Part shown: positions 38,762-50,724 of the stretch, piece by piece
Layout: each line of letters opens with the position of its first letter
Position numbering within the stretch: the first letter of the stretch is position 1
Assembly: GCF_003609775.1 (NCBI RefSeq)
Contig: NZ_AP018049.1
Coordinates: 1,488,001-1,552,000 of the forward strand
DNA: 64,000 bases
Reading direction: 5' to 3'
Origin: Prevotella melaninogenica
GTDB lineage: Bacteria > Bacteroidota > Bacteroidia > Bacteroidales > Bacteroidaceae
Program-made: the position numbers and the translations under genes
Notes under the pieces: generated by a model
Databases searched by the model: none
What the model was told of the DNA's origin: nothing
The model's input: the letters and a program-made list of their open reading frames with translations, nothing else

Positions 38762-39570
38762 TGCAATAGAACTTATTTGTCTTCGCACTAATCCAACACT
38801 TCTCACTCATACTAATTAGCCATTTAAATTACTATTTTTGGAGATAGGTTGATTAGTACTTAATATTGCTTAGCGATGCAAATATATACATATTCTTTTA
38901 CAATCTATCACATTTCATCTTATTTTTTAAATTATATCGTAGACGAAAAGTCAATTAGCAACAAAGAATAAAGTTTCATATCTAAAACTAATTATCTGAA
39001 AATAAATGCGTTATACAATCTACCAAGTTATCTTCAGCACATTTACGAATCAAAAAATAAATTCATCTAATGAGCCTTGACTCAATCTTTAATAGAAAAC
39101 ACCTCCCTTTAAGTCATCTCCCCTTTCTATCGTCCCCTTTCTCTTATATCAAATTATTTTCAAGCAAAATACTACAACACCTCTTAAGTTAACCTTAAAG
39201 TGATTTATATTCGCATTGAAGGTTTCACCAGCTGCGGAGAAAAAAGACAAGTTCTTGGTATTCTTTTAAATTTCTGCAACTTTTATATTCCTATTAACAG
39301 CAACTTATCACTTTCTATAGACAATAATTTAATTTCCTGTCACTCCTGTCACTACCAAAAGAGACACAAGTTATTCATTATCAAAGCCTTTACAAACAAT
39401 GTTAAAATGACAGGAAATGAATTTTAAACTTAATAGTACGATTAAATATGAAAGTGAGTTCTGAATAAAGGTTTGAGTGAGTTCTGATTTATACGGTTGT
39501 CTTTTCCTACCCTTTGGCTACCCGTAAAAACAAAATAGGCTGATAACCAGCAAGTTACCAACCTATATTT
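38762..39570. other. Intergenic region left of the integrated element
   Basis: Host DNA upstream of the sigma gene and up to attL. I find no convincing gene. ATTTCCTGTCA (39332-39342) and TGACAGGAAAT (39408-39418) are an 11-bp inverted repeat 65 bp apart, and GTGAGTTCTGA occurs twice (39452, 39478). A 75-codon frame at 39200-39427 has no recognisable features. Confidence 0.5.
39533..39568 (-). terminator. Original terminator of tRNA-Leu, displaced by the element
   Basis: On the minus strand ATAGG-TTGGTAAC... ...GTTATCA-G-CCTAT forms a stem followed by TTTTGTTTTTACGG. It lies just outside the attL copy of the tRNA 3' end, where the tRNA terminator would be before insertion. Confidence 0.65.
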
Positions 39571-39583
39571 GTACCCAGACCCG
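39571..39583. repeat. attL, 13-bp direct repeat
   Basis: GTACCCAGACCCG, identical to 50642-50654 at the 3' end of tRNA-Leu. Confidence 0.85.
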
Positions 39584-39723
39584 CATTTGAAATATTAAAT
39601 ATGGGAACATTTGAATTAATTCTATTAAACCTTACAATTAAATATAAATCACTTGTAATCAACGAAATAAAGAAAAGCTATATTTATTCTGATTGAAAAT
39701 AATAAAAATATATTTAGGATAAT

Positions 39724-39742
39724 TGGGAACAATTTGGGAACA
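39724..39742. repeat. Candidate integrase arm-type site, left
   Basis: TGGGAACAATTTGGGAACA, identical to 50566-50584; a single GGGAACATTTG also lies at 39603. It overlaps the expected -33 region of the integrase promoter. Confidence 0.6.
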
Positions 39743-39748
39743 AATTAG

Positions 39749-39756
39749 TATCTTTG
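39749..39756 (+). promoter_or_regulatory. -7 box of integrase promoter
   Basis: TATCTTTG (TAnnTTTG), 23 bp before the integrase ATG at 39780. It lies inside the frame that would open at the TTG at 39723 and argues for the ATG start. Confidence 0.55.
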
Positions 39757-39779
39757 CAACAGAACTAAAAACAACGATT

Positions 39780-41117
39780 ATGAAGGTTACCGCATTCATT
39801 CGCAAGACAGCAAAAAAGAACGATACAGATAGTATGGCAACAATCTATTTTCGCTTGCGTGATGGTAAGAAAGATATTAAGGCTGCAAGTGAACTTGTTA
39901 TCAATCCGAATCATTGGAGTAGTGAGAAGCAAGGGTACAAAGACCGTGTTGCACTCGTCTCAGAAGAAAACAAGCTGCATTTATCTCAAAGTATTCAAGA
40001 TATTGTTTCTGCAATTACAGAGCAATATTCTGAAGAAGCTGATAGTGAATGGTTGTCTATGATTATCGACAAGTATCATCATCCTAATCATTACAAGACT
40101 GAAGAGGAATTGATGCAGGAGAATAAACCTACTTTACTGGAACTATTCTCTAAATTCCTTGTAGAACATAAGTTATCCGCTGTGCGGGTAAAGAACTTCA
40201 AGGTTATTCAGCGTTCGTTAGCACGATACGAAATGTATGTAAAAACAGTTAAGCGTAGACATCGTGATTTTATTCTTGACGTAGATGATGTAACCTCTGA
40301 CACTTTAAGGGATATGTGGGATTTCTTTGAAAATGAGCATATCTATTATGAGAAATATCCAAAGTTGTATGAAGCATTTCCAGAGAAGCGTATCCCATTG
40401 CCAAGAGGTAAGAACACTCTGATAGATAGATTTTCTCGCATAAGAACATTCTTTATATGGTGTTATGATAGAAAGATAACAACAAATCGTCCTTTCGATG
40501 AGTTCCCATTAGATGAATGTACCTATGGAACACCTTATTATATTACCTTAGATGAGCGTGACCAAATATTTGATGCGGATTTATCTGGACACCCACAGCT
40601 TGCTATTCAACGAGATATTTTTATTTTTCAAACCTTGATAGGTTGTAGAGTTAGCGATTTATATCGGCTGACCAAGAGAAACATAGTCAATGAGGCTATA
40701 GAATATATTCCTAAAAAGACCAGAGAGGGTAATCCTGTAACAGTTAGAGTACCCTTGAATAGCAAAGCAAAGACAATATTAGATCGCTATAAGGACTACG
40801 GGGGTGCAAAGTTATTTCCATTTATATCAGAACAAAAGTATAATGTGGCTATCAAACGCATTTTTCAAGAAGTAGGTGTAGATAGGATTGTAACGATCTT
40901 AGACCCTTTGACACATGATGAAGTAAAACGCCCTTTGTACGAGGTAGCAAGCAGCCATTTAGCAAGACGCACATTCATTGGTAATATCTATAAGAAGGTA
41001 AAAGACCCGAATTTAGTTTCCGCATTATCAGGACACAAAGAGGGGAGCAAAGCCTTTAGACGGTATAGAGATATTGATGAAGAAATGAAGAAAGATTTAG
41101 TAAAACTTTTAGACTGA
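39780..41117 (+). CDS. Tyrosine recombinase / integrase
   Basis: 445 residues from MKVTAFIRKTAKK. N-terminal arm-binding domain (IYFRLRDGKKDIKAASELVI), SAM-like core-binding domain (LLELFSKFLVEHK, VKNFKVIQRSLARYE), and the catalytic domain with Arg in IGCRVSDLYRLTK (about 291), H-x-x-R in SSHLARRTF (about 393-396), His in LSGHKEG (about 418) and the nucleophile Tyr in AFRRY (about 428). It is of the Bacteroidetes element type (CTn/NBU-like integrases). It should insert the element into the tRNA-Leu 3' end. The next gene begins 7 bp downstream. Confidence 0.95.
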   Translation: MKVTAFIRKTAKKNDTDSMATIYFRLRDGKKDIKAASELVINPNHWSSEKQGYKDRVALVSEENKLHLSQSIQDIVSAITEQYSEEADSEWLSMIIDKYHHPNHYKTEEELMQENKPTLLELFSKFLVEHKLSAVRVKNFKVIQRSLARYEMYVKTVKRRHRDFILDVDDVTSDTLRDMWDFFENEHIYYEKYPKLYEAFPEKRIPLPRGKNTLIDRFSRIRTFFIWCYDRKITTNRPFDEFPLDECTYGTPYYITLDERDQIFDADLSGHPQLAIQRDIFIFQTLIGCRVSDLYRLTKRNIVNEAIEYIPKKTREGNPVTVRVPLNSKAKTILDRYKDYGGAKLFPFISEQKYNVAIKRIFQEVGVDRIVTILDPLTHDEVKRPLYEVASSHLARRTFIGNIYKKVKDPNLVSALSGHKEGSKAFRRYRDIDEEMKKDLVKLLD

Positions 41118-41124
41118 TTAGGCT

Positions 41125-42048
41125 ATGAAAGGAAGTTTTGAAGATTTCAAACAACTTATAAAAGAGTGGCTTGATGCACATCCTAAAGAGTATGGTTCAT
41201 TTGTTGAAGAAATGAACCGAACAAACAGTGCAGGGTTTCAGAAGGTGTTCATGTTAGTAGTGAGGTTAGTTCCCAAATACAAAGATGCTGTCAAAAAGAG
41301 AATGTCTGATGATACCTTGAAAGACTTTTCTTCCTTGGAAAGCATCTTGACTAATTCAAATCTTGCAGAGAACTTGGTAAATGAGTTCCAAAACACAGAT
41401 AAACACTCTATAGTACCAGCTATGCTCGCATGGCTATATTATGGCAGAAGCTACGAGTGTATGGTAGAACAGGGTGAGAGCCTTATTCATAATAGTAAGA
41501 CTAATAGAGTTCATAGATGGATTTTGTCGTTATTAGTCAAATACATTATTCATAAAAGTATATCTTCTGGAGAAAGAACCAAGGAAGATTGGGAGGAATT
41601 TAGATTGTATAAGCATTCCCTATCCACAGATACTGTTATTGAATCAACGTTGGAGAAAGCTATAACTTTTGGTGATAACAAGAATACTGGCACCAACAAG
41701 AAACGTGGCAGACCAAAGGATGAAAGGAATTTGAAGGAACTTCTTAAACCTGGAGCAAACGAAGAGTTGCTTTCTAAGATAAGGGATAGGATATTAACCA
41801 AGCCAAAAGAGAAAGATATTGTTTATCTCAAAATTGCTTTGGAAGAAGAGGGCTTGCTCTACGAATGTAATATAGCACCATTCTATAGAGCATTGTCCGA
41901 GCATTATAATATTCGTTTAATAGGACTTCGTGGTGTTCAGGATGCCTACAAAGAGCTTACTGAGACTATTGGAAAGACAGGAATAAGGTTGATGGATAAG
42001 GGAAAAGATCGTGCTTCGATAGATGAATTTAAGACCTTTCTATCCTAA
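41125..42048 (+). CDS. Unknown protein of Bacteroidetes mobile elements
   Basis: 307 residues, no enzyme motif that I recognise. N-terminal half is helical (FEDFKQLIKEWLDAHPKEY, VRLVPKYKDAVKKRM); around residues 190-200 is KKRGRPKDE, an AT-hook-like basic motif; the C-terminal third (LKIALEEEGLL to IRLIGLRGVQDAYKEL) is again helical. From memory it resembles DUF6043-type proteins that follow integrases in such elements, but I cannot confirm this. Cotranscribed with the integrase (7-bp gap), so a role in excision or its control is a reasonable guess. Confidence 0.6.
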   Translation: MKGSFEDFKQLIKEWLDAHPKEYGSFVEEMNRTNSAGFQKVFMLVVRLVPKYKDAVKKRMSDDTLKDFSSLESILTNSNLAENLVNEFQNTDKHSIVPAMLAWLYYGRSYECMVEQGESLIHNSKTNRVHRWILSLLVKYIIHKSISSGERTKEDWEEFRLYKHSLSTDTVIESTLEKAITFGDNKNTGTNKKRGRPKDERNLKELLKPGANEELLSKIRDRILTKPKEKDIVYLKIALEEEGLLYECNIAPFYRALSEHYNIRLIGLRGVQDAYKELTETIGKTGIRLMDKGKDRASIDEFKTFLS

Positions 42049-42056
42049 TAACAGTT

Positions 42057-42091
42057 CGTTTAATTCGTTTAATATTTAAGCGAATTAAACG
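42057..42091. promoter_or_regulatory. Inverted repeat downstream of the unknown gene
   Basis: CGTTTAATTCG (42057-42067) and CGAATTAAACG (42081-42091), 11-bp perfect arms 13 bp apart, 9 bp after the stop and about 37 bp before the next -7 box. It may be an operator or a weak terminator; there is no T-run. Confidence 0.5.
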
Positions 42092-42127
42092 TTTCGCAAT
42101 TCGTTGAAAATCAATCATTTTACGATA

Positions 42128-42169
42128 TAAATTTGCAGTCGTCATCTCAATCGAGGTGGCGACTTTTTG
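42128..42169 (+). promoter_or_regulatory. -7 box followed by leader hairpin with T-run (attenuator candidate)
   Basis: TAAATTTG (42128-42135) is a -7 box. AGTCGTCATCTC (42137-42148) pairs with GAGGTGGCGACT (42153-42164) through 12 bp including two G-U pairs with a 4-nt loop, followed by TTTTTG. A transcript would meet this terminator almost at once, before the HTH gene. Confidence 0.6.
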
Positions 42170-42222
42170 TTTGCAAACCACCGACAACAGGAAGTCAAAC
42201 AAGCTGGTGGAGTCTAAAAAAT

Positions 42223-42537
42223 ATGACCGATATTTTATCTATCATTCAAGGCTCTAACGCACATGTGCGATTAGAGGTGTCTGGTGAGGATTTGTTGGCA
42301 TTTTCCAACGACCTTATTAACCGTGCGAAAGACGAACTTACATCTATCGTTGAAGAATCACGGAAGGAACGTTTCCTTTCTAAGGAAGAAGTTAAACAAC
42401 TATGTGGAGTCTGTGATGCTACCTTATGGCATTGGGGTAAGAAGAACTATCTGAAGCCTATAAAGGTAGGGAACAAGGTCAGATACAGAATGTCTGATGT
42501 GCAGAAAATCTTAGGTAACGCAACCTCAAAGATCTAA
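42223..42537 (+). CDS. Small helix-turn-helix DNA-binding protein (excisionase/MerR-like)
   Basis: 104 residues from MTDILSIIQG; the frame is open from 42133 but that part is the hairpin leader. The C-terminal half (RFLSKEEVKQLCGVCDATLWHWGKKNYLKPIKVGNK...) has the winged HTH_17 pattern common to excisionase-like proteins of Bacteroidetes elements. The N-terminal 45 residues (VSGEDLLAFSNDLINRAKDEL) are helical. It is 4 bp before the helicase/primase gene and may regulate it or excision. Confidence 0.8.
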   Translation: MTDILSIIQGSNAHVRLEVSGEDLLAFSNDLINRAKDELTSIVEESRKERFLSKEEVKQLCGVCDATLWHWGKKNYLKPIKVGNKVRYRMSDVQKILGNATSKI

Positions 42538-42541
42538 TACT

Positions 42542-43732
42542 ATGGAAAAGGAAGAATATATCCGAGTTGGTACCACCTTATATAAATTGGTAGACCAACC
42601 CAAATTAGGAGGTGGCTTTGTACGCAAGCGTATCGTGTGGAACAACGAAACGCTGCGCCAAGACCACGGAAAGGACTTTATGGCAAGTGTACCTAAGTAC
42701 AATGGTTTCTGTACCTTGCCAGACCATGTGAACTATCAACCAGTTGTAGCAAACTTCCTCAATCTCTATGAGCCGATAGACCATGAGCCCAAAGAAGGAA
42801 CATTCTCACACATAGAAGCCCTTGTATCGCACATATTTGGTGAACAGTACGAGTTAGGAATGGATTATTTGCAGCTGCTCTATCTAAAACCCATTCAGAA
42901 ATTACCTATTCTTCTATTGGTATCAGAGGAGCGCAATACTGGTAAAAGTACTTTTCTCAACTTCCTTAAAGCCATTTTTAAGGACAATGTAACCTTTAAC
43001 ACCAATGAAGACTTCCGCAGTCAGTTCAATGCCGACTGGGCAGGAAAGCTCATCATCGTAGTAGATGAAGTGCTGCTTAACCGTAGGGAAGACAGTGAGC
43101 GACTAAAGAACCTAAGTACCACACATACCTACAAGGTGGAGGCCAAAGGAAAAGACCGCTCTGAAATAGCTTTCTTTTCCAAATTTGTACTCTGCTCCAA
43201 CAACGAGTATCTCCCTCTTATCATAGACATGGGAGAAACCCGCTATTGGGTGAGAAAAATAGAAAAGCTGCAATCTGATGATACGGATTTTCTCAAGAAG
43301 CTCAAAGAAGAAATACCTGCCTTCCTATTCTTTCTCCAGCATCGCACACTAAGTACCCAAGAAGAAAGCCGTATGTGGTTCAATCCTAAACTCACGGAAA
43401 CACCAGCTTTAAAACGAATTATTAGGAGCAATCGTAACAAGTTGGAGATTGAAATGGCAGAACTTGCCATTGACATCATGAAGCAGATGAATATTAAAGA
43501 GTATTCTTTCTGCCTAAACGACATAGTTACGCTACTCAACTATACGCAAGTGAAAGCTGAGAAAAGTCATGTGCGAAAGATAGTACAAGATATTTGGAAA
43601 TTGCAGCCAGCAAGCAATACACTTTGCTACACCACCTACCAGATAGACTTCAATCGCCCAAACTATTATTCCGATGTAAGGAGAATGGGCAGGTACTACA
43701 CCGTCACTCTCGAACAACTTTCAGAGAAATAA
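42542..43732 (+). CDS. SF3/D5-type helicase-primase ATPase
   Basis: 396 residues. Walker A VSEERNTGKSTFLNFL (about 129-144) and Walker B LIIVVDEVLL, followed by SERLKNLSTTHTYKVEAKGKD and the sensor region FSKFVLCSNNE. These match the DUF5906/VirE-like P-loop proteins of mobile elements, related to phage primase C-terminal ATPases. It is too short to include its own primase domain; the Toprim protein encoded next may supply it. Likely function is replication of the excised circle. Winged helix at the C-terminus (LNDIVTLLNYTQVKAEKSHVRKI). Confidence 0.78.
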   Translation: MEKEEYIRVGTTLYKLVDQPKLGGGFVRKRIVWNNETLRQDHGKDFMASVPKYNGFCTLPDHVNYQPVVANFLNLYEPIDHEPKEGTFSHIEALVSHIFGEQYELGMDYLQLLYLKPIQKLPILLLVSEERNTGKSTFLNFLKAIFKDNVTFNTNEDFRSQFNADWAGKLIIVVDEVLLNRREDSERLKNLSTTHTYKVEAKGKDRSEIAFFSKFVLCSNNEYLPLIIDMGETRYWVRKIEKLQSDDTDFLKKLKEEIPAFLFFLQHRTLSTQEESRMWFNPKLTETPALKRIIRSNRNKLEIEMAELAIDIMKQMNIKEYSFCLNDIVTLLNYTQVKAEKSHVRKIVQDIWKLQPASNTLCYTTYQIDFNRPNYYSDVRRMGRYYTVTLEQLSEK

Positions 43733-44198
43733 ATACTATTATTTTGATGAAATGATGAAACAAGAATATAAGCTACTGAATATAAGGAGAATAAATGCTC
43801 ATCAGAAATCCATCAGAAATAAATCATGGATGAAGTGTATAATTGCTGTCCAAAAGAGAAATAGTGTACTATGGTGCCAAGTTTCTCTTTTGGTAAGTAG
43901 TAAATCCTGAGAACATAGAGTAGCGATTTCACTACTTCCTGAAGTAGCAAGCACTTTTGTCTGCACAAAAGTACAACTTGCTCCCCAAGAAAAAATATCT
44001 TATCTGGTAAATAGTGATAAGATGAAACCGTGAAATAACGGAGTAAAGATATAAGGAAATAGTTGCACAAGCATCACTTCCCCTTTAGTCTATTTTTTTG
44101 ATGAAGAGTTGATGTATAATATAAACACTCATTATCAAGCACTTACAAGTAAACGCATCAAATCATCAATTTTCTAACAACATCTAAGCCGTACAATT
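43733..44198. other. Non-coding region with hairpin cluster (candidate replication origin)
   Basis: No gene. Four hairpins in a row: CCAAAAGAGAAA/TTTCTCTTTTGG (43850-43861/43882-43893), CTACTTC/GAAGTAG (43932-43938/43941-43947), ACTTTTGT/ACAAAAGT with outer AGCAAG/CTTGCT (43946-43982), ATCTTATC/GATAAGAT (43997-44004/44016-44023). It lies between the helicase and primase genes. Confidence 0.55.
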
Positions 44199-45134
44199 AT
44201 GAACATTGAAACAGCAAAACATATCAAATTGCAGGACTTTCTGCAAAGTATAGGGCATACACCTATCAAAATTAGTGGCGAGAAGTTATATTATAAATCG
44301 CCATTTAGAAACGAAACACAGGCATCATTCAAGGTAAACACAAAGCTCAACCTTTGGTATGACTTCGGACTTGGCAAAGGTGGTAGTATCATCGCACTTG
44401 CAGAAGAGTTATATCATTCAAGAGATATTTCCTATCTGCTTGTGCAAATAGAAAAGTTAGCTCCAGGCATATCCACTATGAACTATCACTCCTACCAACC
44501 TACAAGGATTGCTACTCCAGAAGAACCTGCTTTTAAGAACATAGAAGTCTGCGAACTATCTCACCCTGCCTTACTTCGTTACCTCGCGGAGCGCAAAGTG
44601 GATATTGCGATAGCTCAAAAGGAATGTGTAGAACTACATTTTACCTATAAGGATAAAACCTACTTTGCTATAGGCTTTGCTAACAAGATTGGCGGCTACG
44701 AACTGCGCAACTCTTTCTTCAAAGGCTGCATAGCACCTAAATCATTTACAATTGTCAAGGCACAAGAGCAAGCCAACATCTGTTTGATATTTGAGGGTTT
44801 TATGGACTACCTTTCTTATATGACCTTGCAAAAGCAAGGAAAGGGTATCTTTACCTTTAGTGATGGCAAGCCAGCTGGAGTTTCGGACATTATTATCCTT
44901 AACTCTGTCACCAACTTGCAAAAGGTAAAGAGCTTTTTAGCCTCCTACGCACACATCGTTTGTCTTTTCGACAACGATAGGGCTGGTCAAACAGCCTACG
45001 TTGAACTATCTAAAGAGTTAGGTGCAAAGGTAGAAGATGGTTCCGTGGCTTACTCAAAGTATAAGGACATTAACGACCTACTTTGTGACAAGCCTATTAC
45101 CACTCAACAACAACGAAAGGGAAAAGGGCTATAA
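44199..45134 (+). CDS. Toprim-domain primase (DnaG-like)
   Basis: 311 residues. N-terminal CHC2-like fold (YYKSPFRNETQASFKVN, LWYDFGLGKGGSIIAL) that lacks all zinc-binding cysteines, then the Toprim domain with Glu in CLIFEGFMDYLSYM (about 197) and D-x-D in CLFDNDRAGQTA (about 256). It should make primers for replication of the element after transfer, as PrmN1-type primases do in NBU elements. Located between the hairpin cluster and the relaxase gene. Confidence 0.85.
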   Translation: MNIETAKHIKLQDFLQSIGHTPIKISGEKLYYKSPFRNETQASFKVNTKLNLWYDFGLGKGGSIIALAEELYHSRDISYLLVQIEKLAPGISTMNYHSYQPTRIATPEEPAFKNIEVCELSHPALLRYLAERKVDIAIAQKECVELHFTYKDKTYFAIGFANKIGGYELRNSFFKGCIAPKSFTIVKAQEQANICLIFEGFMDYLSYMTLQKQGKGIFTFSDGKPAGVSDIIILNSVTNLQKVKSFLASYAHIVCLFDNDRAGQTAYVELSKELGAKVEDGSVAYSKYKDINDLLCDKPITTQQQRKGKGL

Positions 45135-45147
45135 CTCCTCGCTTGCT

Positions 45148-45192
45148 GCCCTATGGATATTTCACAAGCGAAATACCATAGCTCATTAGGGC
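45148..45192. other. Candidate oriT
   Basis: CTATGG-A-TATTTC (45151-45163) and GAAATACCATAG (45170-45181) form a 12-bp stem with one bulged A and a 6-nt loop; GCCCT (45148) and AGGGC (45188-45192) may add an outer stem. It lies 125 bp before the MobV relaxase gene, the usual place of the nicking region. Confidence 0.55.
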
Positions 45193-45316
45193 ATTTTCTT
45201 TACGCAGCCGTTACACTCCTATGCTAAAAATGACCAATGAGCAAAGGGGAAGCCCCTTTTGAAACCCCGAAAAGAATCATCAACCTAAACGTAAAAACAA
45301 ATAATGTAAAAGGACT

Positions 45317-46657
45317 ATGGGATACGCAGTATTACATTTAGAGAAAGCAAAAGGAGCCGACACGGGTATGTCTGCTCATATTGAGCGCACCATTCATCCT
45401 AAGAATGCAGATGATAGTCGCACTCACCTAAACAAAGAACTCATTGAGTTCCCTGATGAAATCCACTCTCGAAGTGAAGCAATTAGCCACCGCATCAATA
45501 CGGCTGGCATTACTCGCAAGATCGGTAAGAACCAAGTACGAGCAATCCGTATTCTGCTCACAGGAACACACGAGGATATGAAAAGGATAGAAGGTTGTGG
45601 ACAACTTGATAGCTGGTGTCAGGACAATCTACAATGGTTGGAAGAAACCTACGGCAAGGAAAACGTTGTGTCGGCTGTTATACACATGGATGAGCATACA
45701 CCACATATACATGCTACGATTGTACCTATTGTTACTTGTGAGCGGAGGAAAGCCGAGAAAGAGAAAGAAAATGGTAAACGTAAATACCGAAAGAAGAAAG
45801 TTGGTACACCCAGACTATGTGCAGATGATGTGATGGCACGCAACCAACTAAAGAATTACCAAGATAGTTATGCCCAGCTCATGAATAAGTATGGCTTACA
45901 GCGTGGTATTGATGGATCAGAAGCCAAACATATCTCCACTTCTGAATATTACAAATCACTCATTGGTGCAACCGAGAACCTACAAAGTGAACTACAAACA
46001 CTTGAATCAAGCAAAGAACAGCTTCAATCAGAACTTAAAGAGGTGAAACAAGGAATTAAAGTAGAGAAACTGAAGAGTTCTGCAGTAACTGCCACAACAT
46101 CGATTACGGATAGTGTATCTTCTCTTTTTGGAGGTAATAAGGTGAAACGATTGGAAGAGGAAAACAAGCAACTTAATGCAGACAAGGCTACTTTGGTAGG
46201 GAATATCTCTACACTCAAAAAGCAAATGGCTACTTCTGAAATGATGCATCAGCAGCAGATGGAAACTATAAAAGACGAGTTCACCCGATACTCAATTAGC
46301 AAACAACAAGAGGAAAGAAAGTTGGAAGAACTTATTCCTTACCTTGCAGATCTCAAGGCTATCGTTCGTGAGTGTTTGCAAATGGGTTTTGCTACGCACT
46401 TGATACGAGCCATTTCATGCTTCAAAAAGGTCAGCTTTAGTGGTTCGCTTTACTCCAAGCAGCATAATCGCAAGTTTACTACCGAGCAATCTGTGGCATA
46501 TATCAAGAATGTTATTCAACTTGAAACAAAGAACAAATGGCGGTTATTCATTGATGATTTGCCTGTAGTAGATTGGTTTAAAATGAAATACCAGCAATGG
46601 AAGAAGAAAAATGAGCAGAATATTTTTCAAAAAAGACATGGAGTAATGAAAATGTAA
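45317..46657 (+). CDS. mobV: MobV-family relaxase (Pre/Mob)
   Basis: 446 residues. N-terminal relaxase domain (1-200) with the MobV features ADDSRTHLNKEL and the metal-binding motif HMDEHTPHIHATIVP (H123, H127, H130, H132). A coiled coil follows (about 215-340, LQSELQTLESSKEQLQSELKE and KRLEEENKQLNADKATL). It would nick oriT and lead one strand into a recipient by means of another element's conjugation pore. A Lys/Arg-rich insert (KEKENGKRKYRKKK) precedes the coiled coil. Confidence 0.92.
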   Translation: MGYAVLHLEKAKGADTGMSAHIERTIHPKNADDSRTHLNKELIEFPDEIHSRSEAISHRINTAGITRKIGKNQVRAIRILLTGTHEDMKRIEGCGQLDSWCQDNLQWLEETYGKENVVSAVIHMDEHTPHIHATIVPIVTCERRKAEKEKENGKRKYRKKKVGTPRLCADDVMARNQLKNYQDSYAQLMNKYGLQRGIDGSEAKHISTSEYYKSLIGATENLQSELQTLESSKEQLQSELKEVKQGIKVEKLKSSAVTATTSITDSVSSLFGGNKVKRLEEENKQLNADKATLVGNISTLKKQMATSEMMHQQQMETIKDEFTRYSISKQQEERKLEELIPYLADLKAIVRECLQMGFATHLIRAISCFKKVSFSGSLYSKQHNRKFTTEQSVAYIKNVIQLETKNKWRLFIDDLPVVDWFKMKYQQWKKKNEQNIFQKRHGVMKM

Positions 46658-46690
46658 TGTGCAATCAGAACCATATTTTTCTTATGAACG

Positions 46691-46722
46691 TTTGGAGATT
46701 CGACAACAATGAGCTATATTTG
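46691..46722 (+). promoter_or_regulatory. Promoter of the AAA ATPase gene
   Basis: TTTG (46691-46694), 20 bp, TATATTTG (46715-46722): a complete Bacteroidetes promoter, 23 bp before the ATG. The cargo gene thus has its own transcription, apart from mobV. Confidence 0.7.
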
Positions 46723-46745
46723 CAAATAAAAAGGAAACACTTCAT

Positions 46746-47735
46746 ATGAAACAGGCTGATTACATCAAACAAATTGCAAGATTTGCTTTAGCAAACGACA
46801 ATGCTCGTTTACTTGATTTGCTGTATCGGTATGTAGAATATTCGCAGCAAAATAACAGAGGTAAATTTGCATCAGAGATACTTTCTATCATTAAAGATAC
46901 TGATAGAAGAAATTCTTTAGGTAAGCTCAGGGAGTTTCGGTTGAATAAGGAAATTGAGAGTAAAGCTGATGAGTTTATCATACAGACAGTAATGTCTTCG
47001 TTTACGATGAAGGATTTAGTCTGTACACCCAATATTCAAGAAGAACTAGAGTATTTTATTAAGGAGAGAAAGCAAGTTGAAACTCTCGCAAAAATGGATA
47101 TTCCTGTTTCAAATAAAATATTGCTTCATGGTCCGTCTGGATGTGGGAAGACGTTAAGCGCTTATGTTTTAGCTGGCGAATTGGATCGTCCATTGATTAT
47201 AGTAAATTTGGGTACAGTAGTTTCATCGAAGTTAGGAGAAACAAGTAAAAATCTCACCCAAATATTTAAGACTGCAGACAAAGAAAAAGCTATTGTCCTG
47301 TTAGATGAGTTTGACAGCTTAGGTAAGATAAGAGATTATGATCAAGACCATGGTGAAATGAAGAGAGTTGTAAATACAATATTACAGTTGTTTGATTTCA
47401 TCAGTCAAGACACAATCATCATAGCTGCTACTAATCAATTACAGATGATTGACGAAGCACTTATTAGGAGATTTGATTTGACAATTAAAATAGATTTGCC
47501 AACCCCCATACAGGTGCATTCCCTTGTTCAATATACGATTAAAGATCGGTTCAAATTTGACAATGAAAAGGCTAAAGAGAAAATTATTAACAAAGAATGC
47601 AACAATTTATCCTACTATGTTATTAAACAAGCCTTGCTTAATGCTATTAAGCGGAATGTATTAGATGGATATGATAACAATGTTATCCGAACAGAGATTT
47701 GGAAAAAACTCTTACACGACAAAAGGATTGGTTAA
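46746..47735 (+). CDS. AAA+ ATPase, IetA-like (cargo defence/stability pair)
   Basis: 329 residues. After a helical N-terminal segment (1-90) comes one AAA+ module: Walker A LLHGPSGCGKT (129-136), Walker B AIVLLDEFDSLG (about 183-193), sensor 1 IIIAATNQ, and arginine-finger region ALIRRFDLTIKIDLP. A small helical lid ends at HDKRIG. Single AAA+ ATPases adjacent to a large S8 protease are the IetA/IetS pair, known from Agrobacterium Ti plasmid maintenance and tested as an anti-phage system. Here the protease gene faces it with 23 bp between. The last codons lie in a 20-bp inverted repeat. I assign the system by gene pairing and domain order, not by alignment. Confidence 0.8.
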   Translation: MKQADYIKQIARFALANDNARLLDLLYRYVEYSQQNNRGKFASEILSIIKDTDRRNSLGKLREFRLNKEIESKADEFIIQTVMSSFTMKDLVCTPNIQEELEYFIKERKQVETLAKMDIPVSNKILLHGPSGCGKTLSAYVLAGELDRPLIIVNLGTVVSSKLGETSKNLTQIFKTADKEKAIVLLDEFDSLGKIRDYDQDHGEMKRVVNTILQLFDFISQDTIIIAATNQLQMIDEALIRRFDLTIKIDLPTPIQVHSLVQYTIKDRFKFDNEKAKEKIINKECNNLSYYVIKQALLNAIKRNVLDGYDNNVIRTEIWKKLLHDKRIG

Positions 47736-47756
47736 TACCAATCCTTTTGTCGTGTA
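47713..47756. terminator. 20-bp perfect inverted repeat between convergent AAA and S8 genes
   Basis: Left arm 47713-47732, loop TAAT, right arm 47737-47756, perfect for 20 bp (TACACGACAAAAGGATTGGT and its complement). It contains the last codons and stop of the AAA gene and ends 3 bp before the protease stop. No T-run on the plus strand, a weak one (GTTTTTTCC) on the minus strand; probably a bidirectional terminator. Confidence 0.8.
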
Positions 47757-47758
47757 GA

Positions 47759-50344
47759 CTATACTTCAGCTTGAAGAGTAGCCTGAGCAATAGCTTCTAC
47801 AGTATTCTCCTGTTCTAGGTTGTCGTATAGACTATTGCCATCTATTTCAACAGAATGATTCTGTTCAATTGTCAAAACGAATGAGAAAGGGTGGTCTGTT
47901 CCAACTAAAAAATCACGTCCTGTACAACGAAAAATAATTGATATCTGGTTGCAAACCTTTTCAATTTCGTCACGACTTACATTTAAAATCTTTTTCTGTA
48001 CATTTGAAAATATTTTGCTAGACGCTGGGTAAAAATCATCAGACCATGCTCCAACACTAGACTTAATAGCCATTCTATCATTATTGTCAGATGCTCTTTG
48101 TCTTGCATACTCTTCTGCATTCTTTCTTGGATCATCATGGTTCATGCTGTTTCCCAAATTGAAGGCAATATGAAATGGGCAATAAGATAAAGCATCGCCC
48201 CGTTTAGGATTGAACTTATAGCAGAGAGTAGCAGTTAAAGTTAGCAATGTACCTTTCTTTGAGCATTGGAGTAAATAACTTGGGATATTCAGATTTATGA
48301 CCTTATGACTATCGAAATCTATTCTATCTTCAATAACAAATGTACAACGATTATCAGTAGAATCTAAACATTTAGAAATATTGGGGACACCATGACCTGA
48401 AATATACTTTGATAATCGCTCTGAACTGTATTTCTTGGACAAACGAGACTTCTCGTTGCGATCTACATTTGGATAAGAATTATTATCTAAAGCTTTTAAA
48501 TTATCAATTGTTCTATCAAGATAATACGTTTTTATCGGGTCGGAACTATTAATCATCAGAGCCTTCACGGATTGCATGCTAAGGTTAGGATACTTACGAA
48601 CAATTTTAGCTGCAATATTAGCTGCTAATGGAGCAGCATAGCTTGTTCCAGAGTTCTGTTCTATTTTCAAGCCAACTCCACCACGTCTCGGCGATAAGAC
48701 CAGCATTCTTGATGCAACATCCAATTGATCACCACCAGGCATAACGATATCAGGCTTGAAGAGATTCTTATTTCTTTGGTTGTTCTTGAAGCGAGTTCCA
48801 TTAATCAAAGAATTATAATCCATGTAATATTTACGAGAATAAAATGCAGGGAGTTCCTTGCTCAAACTCAATCCATGACTCCTCTGGCTTGCATTATAGT
48901 TTTCAGCGATAGCACCAACTGACATGTTATTCATACTTTCACTAGGCTCGCAGAGATTCATGCATTCACCATCATGGCATTTAGTTTCCTCCAGTGTTAT
49001 AAATGGGTTATAATAATGATTAGGATACTGCAAAAATTGTTTTACCTTTTGACTTGTTCCTAGTTCAGCAGCAACATTCTGCATTTCTTCAATATCTTCT
49101 ACACTAAGGTTTCCAACAGAAATGAAAATCAAAAGATCATATTCAAAAGCTAATTCGTCAAGTATATATGCGTAAGTAGAAATATTCTGATTGTATAGCT
49201 TCCCACGGACTGACATGGAGAGATTGAAGATGCGAACACCGTATTCTTGATTAGCCTTAATAATAGCATCTTTTATATCGGCTATATTTAAAGATCCAGT
49301 TTCACCTCTCTGAACTTTTATAGAAAAAATTTTTGCGTCAACATTGATGGTATCAGCATTAATATCTTGGTAGAAGTTATTTCCAAATGCAGCCAATGTC
49401 GCAACCGTAGTACCATGAGTTGAATCTGACATTAAATCAATCTCATAAGGATGCTGTTCTTCCTTGCTCGTCAAATCAAAGCCATCCTGTTCTAATATTG
49501 GATCTAGCACGGCTAATCTCTGAACACCCGTATCAATAACGCCTATCGTCGGTGCTCCCTCAAGCAAATTCAAAGTTGCATCCGATACTATCTCAGAATC
49601 TCCGAATGTGTTAGGACGTATGCGAACGTTATACAACGATTGAATACTTTGTATCACATCAAAATTATCCAATAGAACATCCAAGTCATCTTGTCTTATG
49701 AAATCGATCTGATATATTCCAACTCCTATCTTTCTGTATGTTATATCCTTTTTATCTAGGTATACTTCCATAGCCTTCTCTATATCCTGTTGTTTGTTCA
49801 ACATTCTTGATGAATTTTCCACCAACTCAAGAAGCACATCATTGGCATCTCCATCTATAACAAAAGAATACTTCATAGAATTACTATCCCAATAGCTAAA
49901 ATCAGCGATCAAAGTTAAGGGCTTATACTCCGTACTTTCGTCATTATCTTCTGCAGAAAAGGAATTGATTTGAGTTATAAATACATTATTAAATCGGTTT
50001 ACATCAGCTATAGCGAACAGGACCGTCTGATTCATATTGGAGTAATTAAGTTCTGATAAACCATAAACCTCACAATATTCTTTTATCAAAGCACTATCAG
50101 CAATTTTCAAAAAGTTAATCGATAGCATATCGAAATGATCAACGTTTATTTCTTGTGACCTTAAGTTATGACGATTTTCCATAGCTCGCTCAAATTTAGC
50201 ACGACAACGAAGAAGTTTCTCTCTCTGCTGATGATAGTTCTTAACTTCTCCTGAGGTTTCTTCCTCATTATTTCTACCTCGTGTTCGTTTAAATTCTGGG
50301 CAAGTGCCAAATTCATTCTTTAAAAACAGATGACTTTTACTCAT
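47759..50344 (-). CDS. Subtilisin-like S8 serine protease, IetS-like
   Basis: 861 residues, no signal peptide, so cytoplasmic. N-terminal 255 residues form a basic/coiled helical start (HQQREKLLRCRAKFERAME) and an alpha/beta part. The S8 domain follows with the triad D271 (TIGVIDTGVQ), H310 (SDSTHGTTVAT) and S568 (QNSGTSYAAPLAANI), oxyanion Asn in FISVGNLS. About 250 residues follow without a known fold, starting near ERLSKYISGHGVP. Such large intracellular subtilases with an AAA partner define IetAS: presumably the protease is harmful when released from control. It reads toward the ATPase gene. Confidence 0.85.
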   Translation of the reverse strand: MSKSHLFLKNEFGTCPEFKRTRGRNNEEETSGEVKNYHQQREKLLRCRAKFERAMENRHNLRSQEINVDHFDMLSINFLKIADSALIKEYCEVYGLSELNYSNMNQTVLFAIADVNRFNNVFITQINSFSAEDNDESTEYKPLTLIADFSYWDSNSMKYSFVIDGDANDVLLELVENSSRMLNKQQDIEKAMEVYLDKKDITYRKIGVGIYQIDFIRQDDLDVLLDNFDVIQSIQSLYNVRIRPNTFGDSEIVSDATLNLLEGAPTIGVIDTGVQRLAVLDPILEQDGFDLTSKEEQHPYEIDLMSDSTHGTTVATLAAFGNNFYQDINADTINVDAKIFSIKVQRGETGSLNIADIKDAIIKANQEYGVRIFNLSMSVRGKLYNQNISTYAYILDELAFEYDLLIFISVGNLSVEDIEEMQNVAAELGTSQKVKQFLQYPNHYYNPFITLEETKCHDGECMNLCEPSESMNNMSVGAIAENYNASQRSHGLSLSKELPAFYSRKYYMDYNSLINGTRFKNNQRNKNLFKPDIVMPGGDQLDVASRMLVLSPRRGGVGLKIEQNSGTSYAAPLAANIAAKIVRKYPNLSMQSVKALMINSSDPIKTYYLDRTIDNLKALDNNSYPNVDRNEKSRLSKKYSSERLSKYISGHGVPNISKCLDSTDNRCTFVIEDRIDFDSHKVINLNIPSYLLQCSKKGTLLTLTATLCYKFNPKRGDALSYCPFHIAFNLGNSMNHDDPRKNAEEYARQRASDNNDRMAIKSSVGAWSDDFYPASSKIFSNVQKKILNVSRDEIEKVCNQISIIFRCTGRDFLVGTDHPFSFVLTIEQNHSVEIDGNSLYDNLEQENTVEAIAQATLQAEV

Positions 50345-50565
50345 TGTACAGAGAATTTTAATATTTACAAACTATTCTTATACACAAAATTAGTAATAAG
50401 TATTGAAAATACCATATAATATATAATTAATTTAAGGTGAGACCAATGTAATAGTGACATCTGATTATTAGGAATAATGATCCATATAGTGGACTAATGG
50501 TTAGCACTATTCTTGGCTCACATAATATATTAAAAATATAAGATGGCTAGCTTTGTGTGGTTGAA

Positions 50566-50584
50566 TGGGAACAATTTGGGAACA
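50566..50584. repeat. Candidate integrase arm-type site, right
   Basis: TGGGAACAATTTGGGAACA, identical to 39724-39742 and in the same orientation. Confidence 0.6.
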
Positions 50585-50597
50585 TTTGCAAAACAAG

Positions 50598-50636
50598 AAA
50601 AAGCTAAGTATTGAATAATCAATTACTTAGCTTTTT
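50598..50636. terminator. Element-borne terminator behind tRNA-Leu
   Basis: AAAAAGCTAAGTA and TACTTAGCTTTTT, 13-bp perfect arms with A/T runs on both sides. It lies 6 bp beyond the attR repeat in the direction of tRNA transcription and replaces the terminator now left at 39533-39568. Confidence 0.8.
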
Positions 50637-50642
50637 GCTTAG

Positions 50643-50724
50643 TACCCAGACCCGGGCTCGAACCGGGATGGGTTGCCCCACTGGTGTTTGAGACCAGCGC
50701 GTCTACCTATTCCGCCATCTGGGC
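50643..50724 (-). tRNA. tRNA-Leu (anticodon CAA)
   Basis: 82 nt on the minus strand: acceptor GCCCAGA/TCTGGGT with discriminator A, D arm, anticodon stem CTGGT/ACCAG with loop CTCAAAC (anticodon CAA), a long-arm class II variable region and T arm with GGTTCGAGC. CCA is not encoded. Its 3' 12 nt form attR of the 11-kb element and the gene is intact. Confidence 0.95.

What the first reader, a model, noticed from the sequence alone, without database searches (positions are those of the whole stretch)
46746..50344. IetAS-like AAA ATPase/S8 protease pair in convergent arrangement on a mobile element
An AAA+ ATPase with its own consensus promoter and an 861-residue cytoplasmic subtilase with a complete triad are the only cargo of an IME. 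This combination is the IetA/IetS stability and anti-phage type. Here the two genes face each other with 23 bp between, rather than the co-directional operon I would expect, so the ATPase and protease can be expressed at independent rates; a protease excess after loss of the element or phage takeover of transcription could be the trigger.
Basis: partly seen in the sequence, partly recalled or inferred. Interest (0 to 1): 0.75.

Follow-up and report, generated by a model that had tools for sequence, protein, structure and literature searches.

The report
Tail-to-tail IetAS defence-type gene pair
A mobile element in an unnamed bacterium of the Bacteroidales kind carries a protease gene and an ATPase gene that probably form a poison-and-antidote pair used against viruses, belonging to a branch of the known IetAS family in which the two genes face each other.

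Summary
ietA (46746-47735 +) and ietS (47759-50344 -) face each other, stops 23 nt apart, as the only cargo of an 11.07-kb mobilizable element whose 13-bp end repeat lies in the 3' end of tRNA-Leu(CAA). Both proteins are remote but near full-length homologues of IetA and IetS (PADLOC best hits; profile-profile E 8e-57 and 1e-54), far below NCBI's equivalog cut-offs. The convergent order is not a local oddity: 14 of 14 loci of this branch with an open ietS are tail-to-tail (spacing -6 to +29 nt), 27 of 27 other IetA/IetS pairs examined are co-directional, and each gene tree needs one change of orientation. In 395 genomes of the class both genes occur in the same 7 (the window's included). A covarying hairpin spans the stop codons in the window's subclade, but hairpins are in only 7 of 14 loci overall. 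A related element carries type III-A retron genes in the same slot. Best reading: a toxin-antitoxin-like (IetS toxic, IetA restraining) anti-phage and stabilising cassette with two separate promoters. Toxicity, defence, trigger and any function of the orientation are inferred, not shown. New variant of a known kind.

The parts
39571..39583 (.). attL core GTACCCAGACCCG
   Evidence: 13-bp exact repeat of 50642-50654; same core at the left end of L123-L130 and, with one mismatch each, in L122 and L073; homology with G704 starts at 39568
39724..39742 (.). 19-bp subterminal repeat TGGGAACAATTTGGGAACA (arm-site-like), copy 1
39780..41117 (+). tyrosine integrase (from internal ATG of ORF 39723-41117)
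   Evidence: PF00589 2.5e-7
41125..42048 (+). DUF6043 protein (backbone)
   Evidence: PF19509 9e-103
42133..42537 (+). HTH_17 protein (backbone)
   Evidence: PF12728 1e-6
42542..43732 (+). DUF5906/VapE-like protein (backbone)
   Evidence: PF19263 9e-23
44199..45134 (+). Toprim primase-type protein (backbone)
   Evidence: PF13155 8e-15
45317..46657 (+). MobV relaxase
   Evidence: NF041497 223 bits against cut-off 100
46691..46722 (+). Bacteroidota-type promoter motif of ietA (TTTG-N20-TATATTTG)
   Evidence: the meaning of the motif is recalled
46746..47735 (+). ietA, AAA ATPase, presumed restrainer/antitoxin
47713..47756 (.). 20-bp perfect inverted repeat spanning both 3' ends; hairpin in both transcripts, possible 3'-end or terminator element
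47759..50344 (-). ietS, S8 subtilase, presumed toxic effector
   Evidence: PF00082 5.6e-33; PADLOC PDLC02197 5.6e-33; hhalign of its alignment to co-directional IetS E 1e-54, 667 columns
50385..50392 (-). -7-like box TAATTTTG, starting 48 nt upstream of the ietS start
   Evidence: same place in 5 of 5 subclade loci; no consensus -33 partner
50566..50584 (.). 19-bp subterminal repeat, copy 2
50642..50654 (.). attR core, the 3' end of the tRNA gene
   Evidence: homology with HJM029 and with one G704 match ends at 50655
50642..50724 (-). tRNA-Leu (CAA), integration target

Best explanation
This is a member of a distinct, convergent branch of the IetAS family, carried as a defence/stability cassette in the cargo slot of a MobV-type integrative mobilizable element at tRNA-Leu(CAA). 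Proposed mechanism: IetS is a cytoplasmic subtilase that is harmful when free; IetA, a PAN/FtsH-like AAA ATPase with its own helical N-terminal part, is made from a consensus promoter and keeps IetS inactive. When the balance tips (phage infection, or loss of the element) IetS cleaves host proteins and stops growth, which aborts infection and penalises loss of the element. Because the genes are tail-to-tail, antitoxin and toxin are transcribed from separate promoters, here ietA from a consensus one and ietS from a weaker-looking one. Shown here: homology, pairing, orientation, branch, element, conserved catalytic residues, purifying selection. Inferred from relatives in print: toxicity of IetS and neutralisation by IetA. 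Inferred without direct evidence: target, trigger, and that the orientation matters for control.
For: Profiles: IetA 231 bits over residues 1-322, IetS 112 bits; profile-profile alignment of the branch with co-directional members, IetS E 1e-54 over 667 columns, IetA 8e-57 over 300 columns including the N-terminal part. Pairing: convergent-branch IetS in 7 of 395 and IetA in the same 7 genomes, adjacent each time (the window's genome is one of the 7). Orientation: 14 of 14 convergent; one change on the IetA tree (13 convergent rows, support 100/100) and on the IetS tree (14 rows, quick method, SH-aLRT 100). Selection: window versus L008 dN 0.131/dS 1.256 (IetS), 0.086/1.136 (IetA). Dependence: in HJM029 ietA is cut off and ietS has an internal stop, whereas ietA alone exists on a phage contig (L086). 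Defence context: a related element in G704 carries type III-A retron RT and PRTase genes in that slot; G010 carries JAB, E1-E2 and PDC-S02 hits. Relatives in print: the ATPase neutralises the subtilase in SGI1 (PMC5006074, passages) and in mycoplasmas (PMC8562856, PMC6755753, passages).
Against: Both proteins miss the NCBIfam equivalog cut-offs widely (202 of 510; 80 of 900 bits). No experiment on this branch was seen. In B. rodentium (L011) ietS is open while ietA is frameshifted, which, unless it is an error in a draft record, is an intact-looking toxin without a full antitoxin. The G704 element shares the integrase (93 percent) but its relaxase is only 41 percent identical, so it is a relative rather than the same element with one part swapped. 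Of the sister elements with a readable slot, L130 (2 of 2 slot ORFs of 110 aa or more scanned) and L128 (1 of 5 scanned) gave no PADLOC hit, so the slot is not shown to be always defence. The IetS structure model failed (pLDDT 42).
Confidence: 0.68

Rival explanations
1. Mainly an addiction module: the pair stabilises the element (kills or slows cells that lose it or receive an incompatible one) and any phage effect is a by-product.
For: The founding member stabilises a plasmid (Yamamoto 2009, title only, as cited) and sgiAT stabilises the mobilizable island SGI1 (PMC5006074 abstract and passages). The element here is also an integrative mobilizable one.
Against: Related elements have type III-A retron genes or other PADLOC-type genes in the same slot, as expected of a defence slot. 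The two roles are not exclusive.
Confidence: 0.2
2. IetA and IetS work together as an ATP-dependent protease (unfoldase plus peptidase, like PAN/proteasome or FtsH) that destroys phage or foreign proteins, with no toxin-antitoxin logic.
For: The AAA part of the IetA model aligns best to PAN, FtsH and proteasome ATPases; the genes occur together.
Against: In the related mycoplasma pair, loss of the ATPase alone is lethal and loss of the protease alone is harmless (PMC6755753 passages), which fits restraint; solitary IetA exists (L086) while, among the loci seen, an open IetS of this branch without a full IetA was met only in L011 (frameshifted ietA).
Confidence: 0.15
3. The convergent order has no function: one inversion in an ancestor was inherited because the pair travels as a block. 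(Compatible with the best explanation; it competes with the novel case.)
For: A single change explains all loci; the junction hairpin is at shuffled level in 7 of 14 loci; the full promoter motif is absent from the 9 distant members.
Against: Spacing stays between -6 and +29 nt in 14 of 14 loci across deep divergence (window IetS against L075-L077 30-36 percent identity), and in the window's subclade the hairpin is kept with changes on both sides at 4 of 20 pairs (21 of 500 shuffles also reach 4). Neither excludes inheritance.
Confidence: 0.5

Closest known systems
IetAS anti-phage system (PADLOC IetA/IetS; NCBIfam IteA/IteS)
   Same: AAA ATPase plus S8 subtilase without signal-like N-terminus, adjacent, homologous over most of their length, carried by mobile elements
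   Different: Convergent rather than co-directional; one side of a branch on both gene trees; far below the equivalog cut-offs. Its best PADLOC IetS score is 112 bits, against 1097 (L013) and 401 (L096) for two co-directional proteins; but three other co-directional ones score only 109 (L023), 148 (L018) and 192 (L015), so a low score is not peculiar to this branch
sgiAT of SGI1 (PMC5006074)
   Same: Subtilase toxin and AAA ATPase antitoxin on an integrative mobilizable element (passages)
   Different: The two genes form an operon (figure legend); other host phylum
Mycoplasma TA132/133 (PMC8562856, PMC6755753)
   Same: AAA ATPase antitoxin and S8 toxin, shown to be a toxin-antitoxin pair
   Different: Co-transcribed, ATPase gene upstream of protease gene (passages)
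Restriction-modification genes with opposed promoters
   Same: Toxin- and antidote-type genes controlled through opposed transcription (PMC3874152 and PMC12707154, passages)
   Different: Unrelated proteins; no antisense promoter or RNA was sought or shown here

Membership tests
IetAS in the broad sense (homologous AAA + S8 pair) | AAA ATPase matching IetA over its length, N-terminal part included | tested here: met
   PDLC02196 1-322, 231 bits; hhalign E 8e-57, 300 columns from residue 5. Caveat: the same model also scores another AAA gene of the window's own genome at 144 bits and rings in 14 of 14 controls
IetAS in the broad sense (homologous AAA + S8 pair) | S8 subtilase with intact triad, homologous to IetS outside the protease core | tested here: met
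   D271/H310/S568 invariant in 8 of 8 rows; hhalign E 1e-54, 667 columns from residue 72
IetAS in the broad sense (homologous AAA + S8 pair) | The two genes are adjacent and co-occur | tested here: met
   7 of 395 genomes and the same 7, adjacent coordinates each time
IetAS in the broad sense (homologous AAA + S8 pair) | IetS toxic alone, IetA neutralises; anti-phage activity | not testable with these tools
   needs bench work
NCBIfam IteA/IteS equivalogs (NF042959, NF042956) | score above the curated cut-off | tested here: not met
   201.9 of 510 and 80.2 of 900 bits
Co-directional IetAS as characterised in print | ietA upstream of ietS on the same strand | tested here: not met
   window convergent; 27 of 27 other pairs co-directional (24, three)
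Integrative mobilizable element | site-specific integrase, relaxase, no transfer apparatus, defined ends | tested here: met
   (Pfam and NCBIfam on the 8 main ORFs)
Integrative mobilizable element | excision and transfer by a helper | not testable with these tools
   needs bench work

The most novel reading that the evidence does not exclude
Convergent IetAS is a separately evolved control mode of the family: the tail-to-tail layout makes the two transcripts meet (stop codons overlap or abut in 5 of 14 loci; a hairpin lies between them in others), so transcription of antitoxin and toxin limit each other, and disturbance of host transcription by a phage directly changes the ratio; and some phages answer by carrying the antitoxin gene alone, as on IMG/VR contig L086.
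Probability: 0.2. Interest if true: 0.75.

Novelty: new variant of a known kind. Interest (0 to 1): 0.5.

Why it matters
IetAS is a known defence system (recalled) whose mechanism is called unknown or not fully elucidated in the papers seen. A deep branch in which antitoxin and toxin are transcribed towards each other separates protein-level restraint from operon-level control, so swapping layouts with the same proteins is a direct test of what the operon order does. Type III-A retron genes in the slot of a related element point to a modular defence element, and the antitoxin-only phage contig gives a ready candidate for counter-defence. If the layout proves to be inherited without function, the finding is a well-defined new subfamily and little more.

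Tried and rejected
IetS fold: AlphaFold2 on alignment A4 (7 rows) gave pLDDT 41.8; not used for any claim and not searched. Fold of the IetA N-terminal part: the VIA rows span residues 70-329, so residues 1-69 are barely tested and I claim no known fold for them. A universal hairpin: rejected, 7 of 14 loci are at the level of 100 mononucleotide shuffles each. A canonical bidirectional terminator: one search lists the hairpin as terminator-like on the ietS strand only. Shared promoters in distant members: the full motif is upstream of ietA in 0 of 9 and upstream of ietS in 0 of 14; a -7-like box alone occurs at varying distances in 4 of 9 distant loci for ietA and 5 of 9 for ietS. Faster evolution of IetS as positive selection: rejected; between window and P. 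oris dS itself jumps (0.5-1.0 for residues 1-500, 0.03-0.05 for 601-861), which looks like recombination. A solved IetAS structure: none recognised with IetS profiles A7 (best 60 of 92 shown) and A2; IetA was searched only as a single sequence (best 60 of 287 shown). An empty integration site by the left flank: 6 of 60 genomes of the genus matched, own genome included, none informative beyond G704. Literature: listings showed no title or abstract on convergent IetAS; of 23 papers holding the term IetAS passages of 3 were opened, so absence from print is not shown. Gao 2020 was not looked up (recalled); Yamamoto 2009 is not held.

Rows dropped: of 27 co-directional pairs 24 went into the trees (L020, L024, L042 left out); L011 ietA, L009 and L086 were left out, and L086 was added (quick method), where convergent rows plus L086 form one side at SH-aLRT 95. 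The roots were not inferred. The IetA score limit of 500 bits for the branch leaves out the frameshifted L011 piece (466 bits). The spacing of 29 for L011 is that of the remaining in-place 3' end. Thirteen IetS-like loci had no IetA hit in the stretch held (L003, L006, L007, L014, L026, L031, L032, L034, L036, L038, L041, L094, L095), and L039 and L082 gave no ORF hit; none belongs to the convergent branch by score. L087 has only a weak, cut-off ietA-like hit.
Full report
WHAT IS THERE. They lie at the right end of an element that runs from 39571 to 50641 (11,071 bp): a 13-bp repeat GTACCCAGACCCG at 39571-39583 and 50642-50654, the second copy being the 3' end of tRNA-Leu(CAA). Inside are a tyrosine integrase, DUF6043, an HTH_17 protein, a DUF5906/VapE-like protein, a Toprim protein and a MobV relaxase. 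Homology with other records breaks at these ends: G704 starts at 39568, and HJM029 and a G704 match both stop at 50655. Related elements in four other fetched regions (L122, L124, L128, L130) end at a tRNA-Leu(CAA) with the same core.

ARE THEY IetA AND IetS. PADLOC gives IetA at 7.3e-69 over residues 1-322 and IetS at 5.6e-33, but these models are not specific at loose thresholds (14 of 14 control genomes ring for IetA at 1e-20; 3 of 14 for IetS at 1e-15), and both proteins are far under the NCBIfam equivalog cut-offs. The stronger test is profile against profile: eight convergent IetS against twelve co-directional IetS, probability 100, E 1e-54, 667 columns; seven convergent IetA against eight co-directional IetA, E 8e-57, 300 columns including the N-terminal part. 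Of five co-directional IetS proteins scanned, two score high to their best PADLOC model (L013 1097, L096 401 bits) and three low (L015 192, L018 148, L023 109); the window protein has 112. So PADLOC covers several branches of the family poorly, this one among them.

THE ORIENTATION IS A BRANCH CHARACTER. Five close relatives came from a pattern scan of one genome for each of 84,980 species: uncultured Prevotellaceae (L008), Prevotella HJM029 (L009), a Prevotella MAG (L010), Bacteroides rodentium (L011) and Phocaeicola oris (L012). Searches of whole genomes and IMG/VR added L075, L076, L077, L078, L085 and L090-L093. Fourteen loci, the window included, have an ietS of this branch without an internal stop; all 14 are convergent, with spacing 23, 23, 29, 29, 29, 23, 5, 5, 3, 0, -4, -4, -4 and -6 nt. 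All 27 other pairs with both genes in view are co-directional with ietA first (24, three plasmid loci). Scores separate the groups widely: IetS 580 bits or more against 125 or less, IetA 500 or more (466 for the frameshifted L011 piece) against about 180 or less. On the IetA tree (37 rows) the 13 convergent rows are one side of a branch with support 100/100; on the IetS tree (38 rows, quick method) the 14 convergent rows with SH-aLRT 100; each tree needs one change of orientation. The trees are unrooted, so which order is older is not shown.

PAIRING AND DECAY. In 395 genomes of the class, convergent-branch IetS was found in 7 and convergent-branch IetA in the same 7 (the window's genome included; the two calls appear to use one draw), adjacent each time. 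Two further genomes have a short ATPase of about 235 aa without an IetS hit at E<=1e-20, near the branch on a quick tree. In HJM029 the match to ietA stops at window 47377 and other ORFs follow, while ietS carries an internal stop at about codon 152: both genes are broken together. Against this, B. rodentium has an open ietS and a frameshifted ietA; it is a draft record and could not be checked. A phage contig (L086; small and large terminase, portal, DnaB-like helicase, tape measure) carries an ietA nested among convergent rows (98 SH-aLRT, quick tree), and no IetS was found in its 52.5 kb.

THE JUNCTION. In the window a 20-bp perfect inverted repeat covers the last codons and stop of ietA and the gap (47713-47756). 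Over six loci of the subclade (five distinct sequences) 95 percent of pair cells are paired against 36-48 percent when slid, and 4 of 20 pairs show changes on both sides; among shuffles, 0 of 500 reach the cells paired and the covariation score, 21 of 500 the number of such pairs, and 450 of 500 the number of further pair types. The sequences are few and related, so this is moderate evidence. Hairpins of 10 bp or more occur in 7 of 14 convergent loci (window, L012, L008 with one mismatch, L010, L011, L078, L093); the other 7 are at shuffled level. So the hairpin does not define the branch. It is terminator-like only on the ietS strand. Upstream of ietA the full TTTG/TAnnTTTG motif is in 5 of 5 subclade loci, upstream of ietS only the -7-like box (5 of 5); in the 9 distant members the full motif is absent and a -7-like box occurs in 4 (ietA) and 5 (ietS) at varying distances. 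That this is a Bacteroidota promoter is recalled knowledge.

DEFENCE CONTEXT. The integrase is found at E<=1e-100 in 29 of 379 genomes of the family, own genome included. Seven elements have a slot between relaxase and tRNA end that could be read (window, L122 taken to be the P. oris record of L012, G704 L073, L124, L128, L130, L131). Two hold IetAS; G704 holds type III-A retron genes (RT 2e-146, PRTase 4e-121; its integrase is 93 but its relaxase 41 percent identical); L131 (G010; integrase 64 percent identical, left end not identified) gives JAB, E1-E2, helicase, PDC-M37B and PDC-S02 hits (6 of its slot ORFs scanned); L124 one PD-T4-5/AbiD-like ORF (1 of 2 scanned); L130 (2 of 2 scanned) and L128 (1 of 5 scanned) gave no hit. 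Elsewhere the convergent pair sits near tyrosine integrases in L075, L076, L078, L085 and L093 and beside an AbiEii gene in L090.

SELECTION AND EXCHANGE. Window against L008: IetS dN 0.131, dS 1.256; IetA 0.086, 1.136: purifying selection on both (dS is near saturation). Window against P. oris: VapE-like protein 99.7 percent identical, ietS mosaic with a break around residues 500-600, so the pair seems to recombine between elements.

VERDICT. A real, well-bounded convergent subfamily of a known system, not met in the paper listings searched (3 of the 23 papers that name IetAS were opened); new variant of a known kind; interest 0.5.

Noticed in passing
L086:5001-5999 (IMG/VR contig, 52.5 kb): A tailed-phage contig carries an ietA of the convergent branch and no IetS was found in it: possible antitoxin-only counter-defence. 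The protein matches PHROG 3757, of unknown function, at 7.5e-78.
   Followed up: partly
L073:9901-12403: A related IME at the same tRNA-Leu site holds type III-A retron RT and PRTase genes in the cargo slot.
   Followed up: partly
L009:8001-10975: HJM029: ietA cut off by foreign ORFs and ietS with an internal stop, a natural double loss.
   Followed up: partly
L099:5974-6663, L110, L111: Short AAA ATPases of 229-236 aa without a neighbouring IetS, near convergent IetA on a quick tree and lacking its N-terminal part.
   Followed up: no
L073:13152-16001; L074:9498-16032: The tRNA-Leu(CAA) neighbourhood holds further ORFs that read like a second integrase type and DNA methyltransferases (only the 851-aa methyltransferase of L074 was scanned).
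   Followed up: no
L008:3084-7409 and L011:818-2638: Next to IetAS, a 1441-aa protein with a weak nSTAND hit and a 606-aa AAA-like protein, otherwise different, end in a similar stretch (seen by eye; families); candidates for undescribed defence genes.
   Followed up: no
window 48950-48979 (IetS residues 456-465): Three cysteines (C456, C461, C465) in a stretch present in the five subclade rows and not aligned with cysteines in L075-L077.
   Followed up: no
L131:7486-17971: A large multi-gene cargo with JAB, E1-E2, PDC-M37B, helicase and PDC-S02 hits in the slot of a related element.
   Followed up: no
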